Assembly (NCBI GenBank): GCA_016124955.1
Contig: WGMR01000005.1
Coordinates: 124,001-188,000, forward strand
DNA from: Alphaproteobacteria bacterium
Lineage (GTDB): Bacteria > Pseudomonadota > Alphaproteobacteria > UBA9219 > RFNS01
Direction: 5' to 3'
DNA: 64,000 nt
Made by a program: the position numbers and the translations under genes. Under the pieces are notes generated by a model. It was not told where the DNA came from and searched no databases. It saw only the letters and a list, made by a program, of their open reading frames with translations. Shown here piece by piece: positions 37,875-43,318 of this stretch (its first letter is position 1; every line of letters begins with the position of its first letter).

Positions 37875-38294
37875 CTAGAACACATAGGCCGCGCAAACGG
37901 CGCCGCCGCCCGCCACCGGCATGCGGCCCGAACATTGCGTGACCTCCCAGCCGCGCGTGCGCATGCATTCGGCCACGATCAGGCTTGGTTTTTGCATGCA
38001 CTGGCCTTTTTCTTCGGCCGCGGTCACGCCGGTTTCAACCATGCGTTGCTTGTCGGGCTGAAATTCGATCAGCTCGTGCTGCGGGATGTTGGTGGGGAAG
38101 ATGCCGCAATTGCACTGCGACAGATCGAATTCGAGCTTCCTTTGCGCCTTGTCGAGCGGGAGCATGATGTTCGGTTCGCTGATCGGGCGCCAGAATTCGG
38201 CAACGCGGTTGTTGCCGCAAGCCGAAAGCAATGCCATGACAGAAATCGCGGCAACCATGAGCAGAGCGGGAAGCAGGCGGAAAGTGCGGGTCAT
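37875..38294 (-). CDS. Putative lipoprotein, Cys-rich, unknown function
   Basis: 139 residues. A long hydrophobic leader ends in MALLSACGNN, a lipobox with lipidated Cys. The mature part has six or seven further cysteines (QCNCGIF, GQCMQK, AECMRTRGW, TQCSGR, AVCAA), suggesting disulfides in the periplasm or on the outer membrane. ATG 38294 was chosen over an upstream TTG. It precedes purB by 6 bases and may share its transcript. Confidence 0.65.
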   Translation of the reverse strand: MTRTFRLLPALLMVAAISVMALLSACGNNRVAEFWRPISEPNIMLPLDKAQRKLEFDLSQCNCGIFPTNIPQHELIEFQPDKQRMVETGVTAAEEKGQCMQKPSLIVAECMRTRGWEVTQCSGRMPVAGGGAVCAAYVF

Positions 38295-38391
38295 GATCAA
38301 AACAGCTCCGTGGCACAGAATCTGCCTGACATAATTGGCGATTTTCCATTAAAGCGCAACAGGTTAAACGCAGCGCCCGGCAAGGCCGCTT

Positions 38392-39117
38392 TTACATGAT
38401 TCCAAGCGTCTTGAAGCTGACAACCTTGCCGTGGCCGATGATCAGGTGGTCGTGCACCGTGATATCGAGCGGTTTGCAGGCGGCGATGACCGCCCGGGTC
38501 ATGTCGATATCGGCCTGGCTTGGGGTTGGGTCGCCGCTCGGGTGATTATGGACAAGCACAATGGCCCCCGCGCCAAGCTCCAGCGCCCGCTGCACGATTT
38601 CACGGGGATAAACCGGGGTGTGGTCGATCGTGCCGCGCTGATGAACTTCGTCATCCAGCAGATTGTTGCGCCGGTCGAGGAATAGAAGCCGTAACTGTTC
38701 CTTGTTTTCGTGGGCCATGGCGGCCTGGCAGTAATCGACGATGCTTTGCCATGAGTTGAGCAGGGGCTTGTTGACCAGCTGCTGTTTTTGCCCCCGTAGC
38801 GCGATAGCGCCCGCGACCGCAATGATGCCGATCGCCGAATCGCCCAGCCCGGCGTCGCGCAGACGCTGTGCGGGCGCATGAACGATATGCCATAAATCCT
38901 TGAACTCATTTAAAAGCTCTTTGGCCAAAGGTTTGACGTCGCGGCGCGGAATGGCGGCGCCGAGCAGCAGTTCGAGCAACTCGTAATCCTGCAGCGAATC
39001 CGGCCCGTTGCCGAACAGCCGTTCGCGCAGCCGCTGCCGGTGGCCGAGCCAGTGCGGTGATTCTGCGGTAATTTTGTCTTGCCGGGCTTCGGAAAGTTTC
39101 CGGGGCTTGGCGGTCAT
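38392..39117 (-). CDS. radC: RadC-family (JAB/MPN) protein
   Basis: 241 residues. An N-terminal HhH-like part (LQDYELLELLLGAAIPRRDVKPLAKELL) and a JAB metalloprotease-like domain with HNHPSGDPTPSQADIDMTRAV, the His-x-His metal motif. Once called a DNA-repair protein, the role of RadC is unsettled. The ATG overlaps the map stop by 4 bases. Confidence 0.9.
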   Translation of the reverse strand: MTAKPRKLSEARQDKITAESPHWLGHRQRLRERLFGNGPDSLQDYELLELLLGAAIPRRDVKPLAKELLNEFKDLWHIVHAPAQRLRDAGLGDSAIGIIAVAGAIALRGQKQQLVNKPLLNSWQSIVDYCQAAMAHENKEQLRLLFLDRRNNLLDDEVHQRGTIDHTPVYPREIVQRALELGAGAIVLVHNHPSGDPTPSQADIDMTRAVIAACKPLDITVHDHLIIGHGKVVSFKTLGIM

Positions 39118-39959
39118 GTTGCTGCGGGGCTATAGGGCGGGTGGTGGAAGCCTGCGGGGGAGAGGGTAAAAATTTCATAGCCGGTTTCGGTGACGCCGAT
39201 GCTGTGCTCGAACTGGGCCGAAAGGGATTTGTCTTTCGTGACGGCGGTCCAGCCATCGTTCAGAACCTTCACCTCGAAGCGCCCGGCGTTCACCATGGGC
39301 TCGACCGTAAAAATCATGCCCGGTTTCAGCACCGTGCCTTGCCCCGGTCTGCCATAATGCAGGACAGAAGGCGGCATGTGGAAGACCTGCCCGAGCCCGT
39401 GGCCGCAAAAATCGCGCACGACGGAAAAACGGTTTTCTTCGACAAAGCTTTGTATCGCATAGCCGATATCGCCGAGCGTTGCACCGGGCTTCACGGCGTT
39501 GATGCCGCGCATCAGAGCTTCGTAGGTGATATCAACGAGACGGCGGGCCTTCAGGCTGATCTGATCGCCCACAAAGAACATGCGGCTGGTGTCGCCATGC
39601 CAGCTGTCAAGGATAACGGTGATGTCGATGTTGACGATATCGCCTTCATCCAGCGTCTTTTCGCCGGGGATGCCGTGGCAAACCACGTGATTCGGGGAAA
39701 TACAGGTCGCCTTGGGAAAGCCGCGATAGTTCAGTGGCGCGGGGATCGCGTTATGGTCGCGGATAAAGGTTTCGCATAAACGGTCGAGCTCGCCCGTGAC
39801 GGCGCCCGGCTTCACGAAGGGCGTGATGTAATCAAGCACCTCGGCGGCCAGCCGGCCCGCCTTGTGCATGGCGGCAAACGCTTCCGGGGGGTGGATTTTT
39901 ATGGATGCGCCGGATTCGTCTTCGTAATCGGCTGCCGGCTTGGTGCTGGTTTCCTGCAT
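39114..39959 (-). CDS. map: Methionine aminopeptidase type I
   Basis: 281 residues. Metal ligands lie in NIDITVILDSWHGDTSRMF, GHGLGQVFHMPPSV, IFTVEPMVNAG and AQFEHSIGVTETGYEIFT, the type Ia pattern. It removes the initiator Met from nascent proteins. About 30 residues longer at the N terminus than minimal forms. It begins two bases past the stop of the third paralog (39962-40645) and so is translationally coupled to that unknown gene. Confidence 0.95.
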   Translation of the reverse strand: MQETSTKPAADYEDESGASIKIHPPEAFAAMHKAGRLAAEVLDYITPFVKPGAVTGELDRLCETFIRDHNAIPAPLNYRGFPKATCISPNHVVCHGIPGEKTLDEGDIVNIDITVILDSWHGDTSRMFFVGDQISLKARRLVDITYEALMRGINAVKPGATLGDIGYAIQSFVEENRFSVVRDFCGHGLGQVFHMPPSVLHYGRPGQGTVLKPGMIFTVEPMVNAGRFEVKVLNDGWTAVTKDKSLSAQFEHSIGVTETGYEIFTLSPAGFHHPPYSPAAT

Positions 39960-39961
39960 TA

Positions 39962-40645
39962 TCAGATGGAGCCCGACGGTTTGAACTGCATCATGTTTTT
40001 CATGGCATCATTCTTGTTGGTGGCGACATTCTGCTGCGTCGCGGATATTTGCATCATCTTGCCGAATTCGGTTGGCGCGCGGCTTGATGACGTACGTTCG
40101 GCCAGCAAAAGGTTATAGAGGATGCCGGGGATGCCGCCGTCTTCGTGTTTGCCGCTGCGGATACCTTCGTCCTGCCGCGCCTTGGGGCCCCAGAAAAGCT
40201 CGATCACGCGCGTATCACGCGTGCCGCGCTTTTTCCTTTTCTTGATAGGGAGGCCGGTTTCTTCGTCAATTTCCTCTTGCTGTTCTCCGGTGTCATCCCA
40301 CTTGCAATCTTCCCAATTGACGAACAGGAAATCCTGCATCGAGCTGGAGATGAAGGGGAAGTTGACCAGCAGTTCACGCAACATCGCGGCCGCCTTGAAG
40401 ATGGCCTCTTCTTCCAGTTCCCGGATCTTGGCTTTTTCTTCGTCGGTCTTCATACCCTTGCGGATGGCGTTGACGACGGCGGCGCAGTTATCCTTGAGCT
40501 TGCGGGCCCATTCCGCGGCTTCCTGTCCGCGTATGACTTCGCCATTTTCGTTATATATTTCGCTGATGGTACGGAAGCGCTTCACGAGACATTCCGACCA
40601 GTACCACCAGTCGTTAAAAGGGGCGCGTTGGCTGTATGATTGCAT
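39962..40645 (-). CDS. Unknown-family protein, tandem paralog 3 of 3
   Basis: 227 residues, soluble, acidic then basic in the middle (KKRKKRGTRDTR). The N terminus FNDWWYWSECLVKRFRTISEIY and the internal AAAMLRELLVNFPFISSSMQDFL and GPKARQDEGIRSGKHEDGGIPGILYNLLL align with the two proteins encoded next on the same strand. Predicted mostly helical. C-terminal tail is Met/Asn/Gln-rich. No domain recognised. It is two bases from map. Confidence 0.6.
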   Translation of the reverse strand: MQSYSQRAPFNDWWYWSECLVKRFRTISEIYNENGEVIRGQEAAEWARKLKDNCAAVVNAIRKGMKTDEEKAKIRELEEEAIFKAAAMLRELLVNFPFISSSMQDFLFVNWEDCKWDDTGEQQEEIDEETGLPIKKRKKRGTRDTRVIELFWGPKARQDEGIRSGKHEDGGIPGILYNLLLAERTSSSRAPTEFGKMMQISATQQNVATNKNDAMKNMMQFKPSGSI

Positions 40646-40746
40646 GATTTCTCAAATCCGCTTTGCAACGCAACGGTTGGCGTTGTTTTGTGCATCTTAA
40701 GATTCAGGGCCCGTTATGGCAACCCGCATAAGCCGGGGGCTGCGCG

Positions 40747-41349
40747 TTATTCAATGCCGCCCGACTTGCGCAGATGCGATGTGCGGGTTTCGGCCCAGCG
40801 GCGCGCGAGATCTGTGCGCCGGTTCCGTTCGTCGGGCGCCACCGGCATGGCCGTGGCGGACGTGCGCAGCGGCCTGTCTGTGCCGCGTTCTTCACGGTCG
40901 AGCAGATTGCTGATCACCCAGGGCAACATGCCATCGAAAGCGTTGCCGCTGCCGATGCCTTCATTCTTTGTGCCGACGGGGCCCTTGAACAGATCGGCGG
41001 CGAGCCGGCCATTGCAATCGCCGGTCCAGCTTGAGCGCAGAAGCTGCTGCATATCGAGCGAGATTTCTGGCAGCTTATCGATCAGCTCCGTGCATAATAC
41101 GGTCAGGCTGTTGATGCGAAGCTCGTCGTATTTCGAGCCATCTTGCCCGGTCTTGAAACCGGCATGGCTGTGCAGCCCGTCTTCAAGCGTCGTCTGGCGC
41201 AGCTTGACGAGGAACACGTCGAGGTCGCGGGCTTTGCCGTCCAGCTTGTTATTGCGGTAAACCGTGGACACAGTTGTGAGCCGCCTAATAAGCGCTCCGG
41301 AGGCCTGCATCCATTCATCAAAGGATGCTTTTGTTTCAGGCGTGGGCAT
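40747..41349 (-). CDS. Unknown-family protein, tandem paralog 2 of 3
   Basis: 200 residues. FDEWMQASGALIRRLTTVSTVY, LCTELIDKLPEISLDMQQLL, and GPVGTKNEGIGSGNAFDGMLPWVISNLL align with paralog 3. A basic C terminus (RNRRTDLARRWAETRTSHLRK) may contact nucleic acid or be disordered. 101 bases separate it from paralog 3. No family recognised. Confidence 0.6.
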   Translation of the reverse strand: MPTPETKASFDEWMQASGALIRRLTTVSTVYRNNKLDGKARDLDVFLVKLRQTTLEDGLHSHAGFKTGQDGSKYDELRINSLTVLCTELIDKLPEISLDMQQLLRSSWTGDCNGRLAADLFKGPVGTKNEGIGSGNAFDGMLPWVISNLLDREERGTDRPLRTSATAMPVAPDERNRRTDLARRWAETRTSHLRKSGGIE

Positions 41350-41486
41350 AACTACCCCATTAAATAATCAAATCAGGTGTTTATGATATAGCGGTCGTCG
41401 CTGAATCGCAAGGAATGAAAGTGAAAAGTGCGACGGCCCGTATTTATTTGCAGAGTTAGTTTCTTAGCGTTTTCAGGCTGTTTTGA

Positions 41487-42128
41487 TCAGGCGGCCGGTT
41501 TGGGAGCCACGTTGAATATGCTGCGCATCATGCGCTCTTCGCCATGCATGCGGTTATCCATCTCGTAGCCGAGGGCGGGCATGGAGCCGGGCGTGATGCC
41601 ATCGCGGGGCTTGAGAGCACCCATATAAAGGAAGCCGACCTGTCCCAGAATCATGTTGCGCATCACGAAGGTCAGGTAGCCAGGGCGGGGCCAGCCATCG
41701 GCGATGCCGCGGGGATTGTCATAATCCGGATAGCCAAAAATCATGGCGGCGCGCAGCGTCTTGAAGCCTATGCCGCCATTGTCGCCGTCGGTTTGTTCGC
41801 CCTTGCGCCGTTCCGGCACTTCGCTAAAACCCGCGCGCCAATCGTCGCCCAGCAGGTCTTGCAGCGTTTCCGCCGTTTTGGGCAGCTCGCGCAGGAAGCG
41901 CCTGTAGATCATCGCATAGTTCTGGCGGTACAGCTCGTCGCGCTGACTGTCTTTGGTTTTGAGCCAAAGTTCCTTCAGCTCGGCGCGGTAAAATTCAAAA
42001 AACTTGGCTTCCTTTTCGCGGGCATGCTCGAACAAAGTTGCCGCGATCACGCCCATGCGGTCATAGACGATATCGCTCCATTCTTCCCAGACAATCATGG
42101 GAAGCTTTTTTTCGGGCACGAGAAGCAT
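41487..42128 (-). CDS. Unknown-family protein, tandem paralog 1 of 3
   Basis: 213 residues, the most divergent of the three. WEEWSDIVYDRMGVIAATL, YRRFLRELPKTAETLQDLLGDDW and YPDYDNPRGIADGWPRPGYLTFVMRNMIL fit the shared pattern F/W..W...(18-20)..LP....(M/L)Q.LL...W...and G....(EG/RG)I..G......NL/NM. Rich in aromatic and charged residues. No domain recognised. aroC lies 89 bases further upstream on the strand. Confidence 0.58.
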   Translation of the reverse strand: MLLVPEKKLPMIVWEEWSDIVYDRMGVIAATLFEHAREKEAKFFEFYRAELKELWLKTKDSQRDELYRQNYAMIYRRFLRELPKTAETLQDLLGDDWRAGFSEVPERRKGEQTDGDNGGIGFKTLRAAMIFGYPDYDNPRGIADGWPRPGYLTFVMRNMILGQVGFLYMGALKPRDGITPGSMPALGYEMDNRMHGEERMMRSIFNVAPKPAA

Positions 42129-42217: not shown

Positions 42218-43318
42218 CTATTTACGGGTTTTTCCGGGTTTCCGGTCCGGGCGCATAGCTTTGTAACGCAGCAGGTGGTCGGCAAGCACGCAAGCCATCA
42301 TAGCTTCGCCGATCGGCACGGCCCTGATCCCGACGCATGGGTCGTGCCGGCCCTTGGTTGTTATATTGGTATTGTTGCCACGAATATCAATGGTCCGCCG
42401 CGCCGTGAGGATCGAGCTGGTCGGTTTCACGGCAAAACGCACAACGACATCCTGCCCGGTCGAAATGCCGCCCAGAATACCGCCCGCGTGGTTGGAAAGG
42501 AATTTCGGCAAGCCGTTCTTGCCCTTGCGCATTTCATCGGCGTTATCTTCGCCCGCCAGTTCGGCCGCGGCAAAGCCATCGCCCACTTCCACGCCTTTGA
42601 CGGCGTTGATGGTCATCATCGCGCGCCCGAGATCGCTATCGAGCTTATCGTACACAGGGTCGCCCAGCCCGGCGGGAATGCCGGATGCCACAACTTCAAT
42701 TACCGCGCCGGTGGATGAGCCTTGCTTGCGGATATCGTCAAGGTAACCGGCCCACAACGCCGCGGTCTTTTTGTCGGGGCAGAAAAACGGGTTCTTGCCG
42801 ACCTCGCTCCAGTTCCAGCGGTTGCGGTCAATTTTATGCTTGCCGATCTGGACCAGCGCGCCGCGGATTTTGATTTTCTCGCCGAGAATTTTGCGGGCTA
42901 TGGCGCCGGCCGCGACCCGGCAAGCGGTTTCACGCGCCGATTGCCGGCCGCCGCCGCGATAATCGCGCACGCCGTATTTTGCCCAATAGGTATAGTCGGC
43001 ATGGCCGGGGCGGAACTTTTCGCTGATATCGCCATAGTCCTTCGATCGTGCATCCTGATTTTCGATGATGAGCGCGATGGGCGAGCCAGTGGTTACGCCT
43101 TCAAAGACGCCCGAAAGGATTTTGACCGTATCGGGTTCCTTGCGCTGGGTCGTGAAGCGCGACTGGCCGGGTTTACGCTTATCGAGATAACCCTGAATAT
43201 CCTGCGGGCCGAGCGGGATTAGCGGCGGCGCGCCGTCAACGACAACGCCAATGGCGGGCCCATGGCTTTCACCCCATGTCGTGAAGCGGAAGAGGGTGCC
43301 GAAGCTGTTGCCTGCCAT
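42218..43318 (-). CDS. aroC: Chorismate synthase
   Basis: 366 residues. The three family signatures are present: [17 protein letters not shown], the [13 protein letters not shown]-like [31 protein letters not shown], and the C-terminal [23 protein letters not shown]. It makes chorismate from EPSP with reduced FMN. Ten bases separate it from fabI upstream; the two are commonly adjacent in Alphaproteobacteria. Confidence 0.96.

What the first reader, a model, noticed from the sequence alone, without database searches (positions are those of the whole stretch)
39962..42128. Three tandem diverged paralogs of an unknown family upstream of map
Genes at 39962-40645, 40747-41349 and 41487-42128 share an N-terminal W/F..W pattern, an LP.IS..MQ.LL segment and a G....EGI.SG...NLL segment, on the same strand. 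The last is two bases from map, so translationally coupled to methionine aminopeptidase. Two tandem duplications followed by divergence without loss imply distinct retained roles.
Basis: partly seen in the sequence, partly recalled or inferred. Interest (0 to 1): 0.7.

Follow-up and report, generated by a model that had tools for sequence, protein, structure and literature searches.

The report
Orphan three-gene helical family beside map
Three neighbouring genes really are diverged copies of one undescribed, all-helical soluble protein that almost every genome of one uncultured alphaproteobacterial order carries; two copies are ancient and near-universal, the third is rare, and what they do is still not known.

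Summary
Three minus-strand genes, here called A (39962-40645), B (40747-41349) and C (41487-42128), are homologous over most of their length. A and B orthologue profiles align at E=8e-26. C scores 38.7 bits against an A+B profile built without it; the best of 3,000 shuffles of C scores 11.2. No Pfam, NCBIfam, PHROG, PADLOC or PDB sequence family matches credibly, and no solved fold matches clearly.

A is in 20 or 21 of 21 near-complete genomes of the order. B is nearly as common; C is in only two genera. Outside the order, relatives turned up in only two of 385 class genomes. A and B split before the order arose, so the trio is not two recent tandem duplications. A lies directly before map in 13 of 26 readable genomes, often with stop/start overlap; the A-B pair is the more conserved link (22 of 27).

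Best reading: soluble helical-bundle proteins acting as an A-B partnership in order-specific housekeeping, with C an accessory. Partnership and role are inferred. A new orphan family, moderately interesting; not evidence of a methionine aminopeptidase system.

The parts
39962..40645 (-). gene A (P0001, 227 aa): slow-evolving paralogue, in nearly every genome of the order; stop codon 2 nt before map
40747..41349 (-). gene B (P0002, 200 aa): faster-evolving paralogue, normally directly upstream of A; model pLDDT 86.9
41487..42128 (-). gene C (P0003, 213 aa): third, most diverged paralogue; orthologue only in G001
39114..39959 (-). map, methionine aminopeptidase (Peptidase_M24), downstream neighbour of A; a neighbour, not part of the family
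   Evidence: adjacency in 13 of 26 genomes
42218..43318 (-). aroC, chorismate synthase, upstream neighbour; fabI-aroC-B-A is common in the order
41383..41411 (-). sigma-70-like promoter match (9 of 12) about 34 nt before B; consensus match only
   Evidence: 6 found in the region, 2.8 expected
40694..40722 (-). sigma-70-like promoter match (9 of 12) about 49 nt before A; consensus match only

Best explanation
A, B and C are paralogues of an undescribed, soluble, all-helical protein family that belongs to the core genome of one uncultured alphaproteobacterial order (shown). The predicted fold is a bundle of three long helices plus a rigid glycine-rich loop carrying the family signature F.G....(E)GI..G....G.LP..L.N(L/M), then further helix and a flexible tail (prediction). 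Most likely (inferred), A and B work together as subunits of one cytoplasmic scaffold or adaptor. A would be the constrained part and B the faster-evolving, partner-specific part, with C an extra subunit in two genera. The adjacency of A to map would then reflect shared housekeeping expression, not a dedicated role in methionine removal.
For: Homology of all three. A in nearly all near-complete genomes of the order and B nearly so. A-B directly adjacent on one strand in 22 of 27 genomes with both, across three families, more constant than aroC-B or A-map. The A/B split predates the order and both types persist in G132. No transmembrane segment: highest 19-residue Kyte-Doolittle mean 1.3; no signal-like N-terminus by eye; near-neutral pI. 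Confident all-helical model of B, pLDDT 86.9, pTM 0.76. No catalytic motif or enzyme family match; only W13, F121, G131 and G135 (B numbering) are invariant across the 53 aligned A, B and C proteins, which looks structural rather than catalytic.
Against: No direct evidence of A-B contact. The co-evolution test is inconclusive: A-B partial correlation 0.61, but the control pair aroC-fabI reaches 0.52, and without family f2 A-B falls to 0.52 against 0.61 for the control. A exists without a detected B in G007, and the two are unlinked in G001, G009, G011 and G019. The model of A itself is mediocre (pLDDT 69).
Confidence: 0.35

Rival explanations
1. A is a translation-associated factor (ribosome-, nascent-chain- or RNA-binding) tied functionally to methionine aminopeptidase, and B is its paralogous partner.
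For: A precedes map with a gap of -4 to 3 nt in eight genomes (G000, G023, G029, G018, G019, G013, G007, G016) and with 23-73 nt in four more. Elsewhere A lies before nusA-infB (G009) and beside rpsB-tsf (G132). The best distant structural rows include the RNA-binding protein She2p, Z 8.0 over 128 residues.
Against: Half of the readable genomes lack the map link, with unrelated neighbours. The She2p rows are within the range the tool says helical bundles reach by chance, and Foldseek gave E=0.9. The nusA and rpsB assignments were read from the start of the ORFs, not scanned.
Confidence: 0.2
2. A, B and C have separate functions and no shared complex; the cluster is a relic of duplication kept by linkage.
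For: B evolves about three times faster than A; A and B are unlinked in four genomes and in G132; C is present in only two genera.
Against: A-B adjacency survives in 22 of 27 genomes although the flanking genes change.
Confidence: 0.25
3. The genes come from a phage or other mobile element (structural or chaperone-type helical proteins).
For: One PHROG match for A, phrog_674, E=9e-4.
Against: Only 1 of 28 orthologues matches phrog_674. No relatives of A in phages, plasmids or viral contigs. Conserved housekeeping context and near-universal presence argue for a resident core gene.
Confidence: 0.04
4. The similarity of the three is chance or shared helical composition.
For: Low pairwise identity between B and C (20%).
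Against: Profile E-values, shuffle controls and reciprocal matches across about 30 genomes.
Confidence: 0.01

Closest known systems
She2p (yeast RNA-binding protein; PDB 4wnl, 1xly, 5m0i)
   Same: All-helical bundle; VIA-align Z up to 8.0, 128 residues, rmsd 4.2
   Different: 9% identity, Foldseek E=0.9, no sequence relation; Z is inside the background for helical bundles
Bacterioferritin/ferritin four-helix bundles
   Same: Helical-bundle arrangement, weak Foldseek rows for A and B
   Different: E of 2 or more, rmsd mostly about 15-18 A, no sequence relation; di-iron ligands not examined
Methionine aminopeptidase (map, Peptidase_M24)
   Same: Neighbour and, in half of the genomes, probably co-transcribed with A
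   Different: No homology; A is not an extension or a domain of the enzyme
Lineage-restricted orphan core genes of uncultured bacterial orders (general kind)
   Same: Near-universal in one order, no relatives in family libraries
   Different: Here an ancient, retained two- or three-member paralogue set with strong microsynteny

Membership tests
The A/B/C orphan family (defined here) | Profile similarity over most of the length | tested here: met
The A/B/C orphan family (defined here) | N-terminal W (W13 in B), LP..S..(M)Q.(L/F)L segment, F.G and GI..G....G.LP loop | tested here: met
   W13, F121, G131, G135 invariant in 53 rows; L90, P94, S97, Q101, L142, P143 at 90% or more; C keeps the invariant positions but not S97 or P143
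Any Pfam-A, NCBIfam, PHROG or PADLOC family | Match over the curated cut-off, or a consistent weak match across members | tested here: not met
   for PHROGs only A's orthologues and the three window proteins were scanned, for PADLOC only the three window proteins
She2p-like RNA-binding bundle | Fold match clearly above unrelated helical bundles | tested here: inconclusive
She2p-like RNA-binding bundle | RNA binding | not testable with these tools
   needs an assay
Ferritin-like bundle | Fold match and di-iron ligands | tested here: inconclusive
   searches give only weak rows; ligand residues were not examined
Phage structural/chaperone protein | Relatives in phage or viral records | tested here: not met
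   (A only); BFVD fold search of the B model without a match at E<=0.001
Dedicated map-linked system | Linkage to map in most genomes | tested here: not met
   13 of 26 readable genomes

The most novel reading that the evidence does not exclude
A, B and C are interchangeable or mixed subunits of an undescribed order-specific cytoplasmic assembly that is essential to this uncultured lineage and coupled to N-terminal protein processing, with C adding a specialised variant in two genera.
Probability: 0.12. Interest if true: 0.7.

Novelty: new member of a known kind. Interest (0 to 1): 0.38.

Why it matters
It is a clean, testable example of an unannotated core protein family of a whole uncultured order: near-universal, anciently duplicated, in a stable neighbourhood, and absent from the family libraries searched. 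If the A-B partnership is real it would point to cell biology peculiar to this order. It also corrects a tempting inference, since close coupling to map in one genome does not show a general link to methionine aminopeptidase.

Tried and rejected
Phage origin from phrog_674: seen in 1 of 28 orthologues only. Phage, plasmid and viral-contig searches with A: nothing. PDB by sequence: nothing credible. Foldseek and VIA-align: no clear fold; none of the 36 rows at Z 5 or more stands above the background stated for helical bundles. A mirror-tree test for A-B co-evolution looked strong at first, but control gene pairs do as well, so it is not used as evidence. A possible link to PopZ was suggested because family members lie near popZ-tolC in G132 and G133; rejected for the order, where popZ is present but on another contig in G000 and in nearly all the others. 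Literature searches found nothing on the family.

Full report
What is there. Three ORFs on the minus strand, C (41487-42128), B (40747-41349) and A (39962-40645), lie between aroC and map. A ends two bases before the map start; B-A, C-B and aroC-C are separated by 101, 137 and 89 nt. Promoter-like matches sit about 34 nt before B and 49 nt before A, but these are consensus matches only.

Are they homologous? Yes. Orthologues of A (28 rows, A1) and B (23 rows, A2) were collected from the order. A1 vs A2 by hhalign: probability 99.7%, E=8e-26, 162 columns. C and its single orthologue (L076 769-1395, 37% identical) match B at E=7e-13 and A at E=1e-6. As an independent control, an A+B profile built without C gives C 38.7 bits and its orthologue 36.3, while 3,000 shuffles of each reach 11.2 and 6.0. 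The hhalign E-values are for single comparisons; the shuffle test is the firmer number. The C orthologue stays open with a strongly conserved C-terminal core (NP.GIADGWPR.GYL..VMRNM), so C is a maintained gene, not a decaying copy.

Where does the family occur? A profile of A gives a match in all 21 genomes of the order that are at least 90% complete and at most 5% contaminated, and in 30 of 33 overall. In G021 the matches are to B rather than A, so 20 of 21 is the stricter count for A; in the more contaminated G026 only the C-terminal end of A appears, at two contig ends. B is detected in nearly all of the same genomes; exceptions are G007, which shows only A, and G026. C occurs in G000 and G001 only. 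Each is the only genome held for its order. A phylum-wide sample of 398 genomes adds one weak 51-residue hit in G667 (E=0.002), which I regard as chance. There are no relatives of A in phages, plasmids or viral contigs.

History. In a maximum-likelihood tree of 54 proteins, A-type proteins, including that of G132, form one group (97/98); B-type proteins group with weak support (66/68); C is a very long, well-supported branch whose place is unresolved. So A and B split before the order arose. C is either an old copy lost almost everywhere or a younger, fast-evolving one; the data do not decide. Mean pairwise distances are 0.45 for A, 1.47 for B and 0.34 for aroC: A evolves nearly like a housekeeping enzyme and B about three times faster.

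Neighbourhood. The common arrangement is fabI-aroC-B-A-map. B and A are directly adjacent on one strand in 22 of 27 genomes that have both, and separated by one ORF in one more (G029). They are on different contigs in G001, G009, G011 and G019. Map follows A in 13 of the 26 genomes in which the 3' flank can be read, in families f1 and f3 but never in f2; in two more genomes the contig ends there. Where present, the gap is often a stop/start overlap or a few bases. In G001 the C-B pair and the A-map pair are on different contigs, which suggests two modules joined in this window. These counts were made from the gene tables by eye.

What it may do. The three proteins lack a predicted membrane segment and have near-neutral pI. 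AlphaFold2 gives a confident model of B from the combined alignment A4 (pLDDT 86.9, pTM 0.76) with helices 10-33, 37-55, 70-104, 115-122, 141-155 and 172-195; the conserved glycine-rich loop lies between helices 115-122 and 141-155. The model of A is weaker (pLDDT 69.2) and its lysine-rich stretch around residues 135-142 is of very low confidence. No fold match is convincing: best Foldseek E is 0.9, best VIA-align Z is 8.0 (She2p), within the stated background for helical bundles. Only four residues are invariant in 53 proteins and none suggests catalysis. I therefore favour a soluble scaffold or adaptor made of A and B, with C as an accessory; presence, homology, synteny and fold class are shown or predicted, while partnership and role are inferred. 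A mirror-tree test did not help, because unrelated control pairs gave similar values.

The claim of two tandem duplications and of map coupling as a general property is not borne out; distinct roles for A and B are plausible. This is a new orphan family of a known general kind, of moderate interest.

Noticed in passing
L091 8980-9420 and 12271-12858; L082 9300-9920 and 12499-13050: In both genomes outside the order the family member lies within about 3 kb of a PopZ-like (MEEILASIRRII) gene followed by a tolC-like gene, though on the opposite strand; in the order itself popZ is not near A or B.
   Followed up: partly
   Followed up: no
L080 and L081 (G026 contigs C28 and C82): Two contigs of G026 end in the same C-terminal piece of A, which suggests an assembly break or duplicated contig end there.
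   Followed up: no
L013 6313-7302 and 8098-9057: In G029 extra ORFs of 329 and 319 aa interrupt aroC-B and B-A, the only interruption of the A-B pair seen within one contig.
   Followed up: no
window 37875-38300, minus strand: A short lipoprotein-like ORF between purB and radC has no Pfam match but an orthologue in the same place in L024.
   Followed up: no
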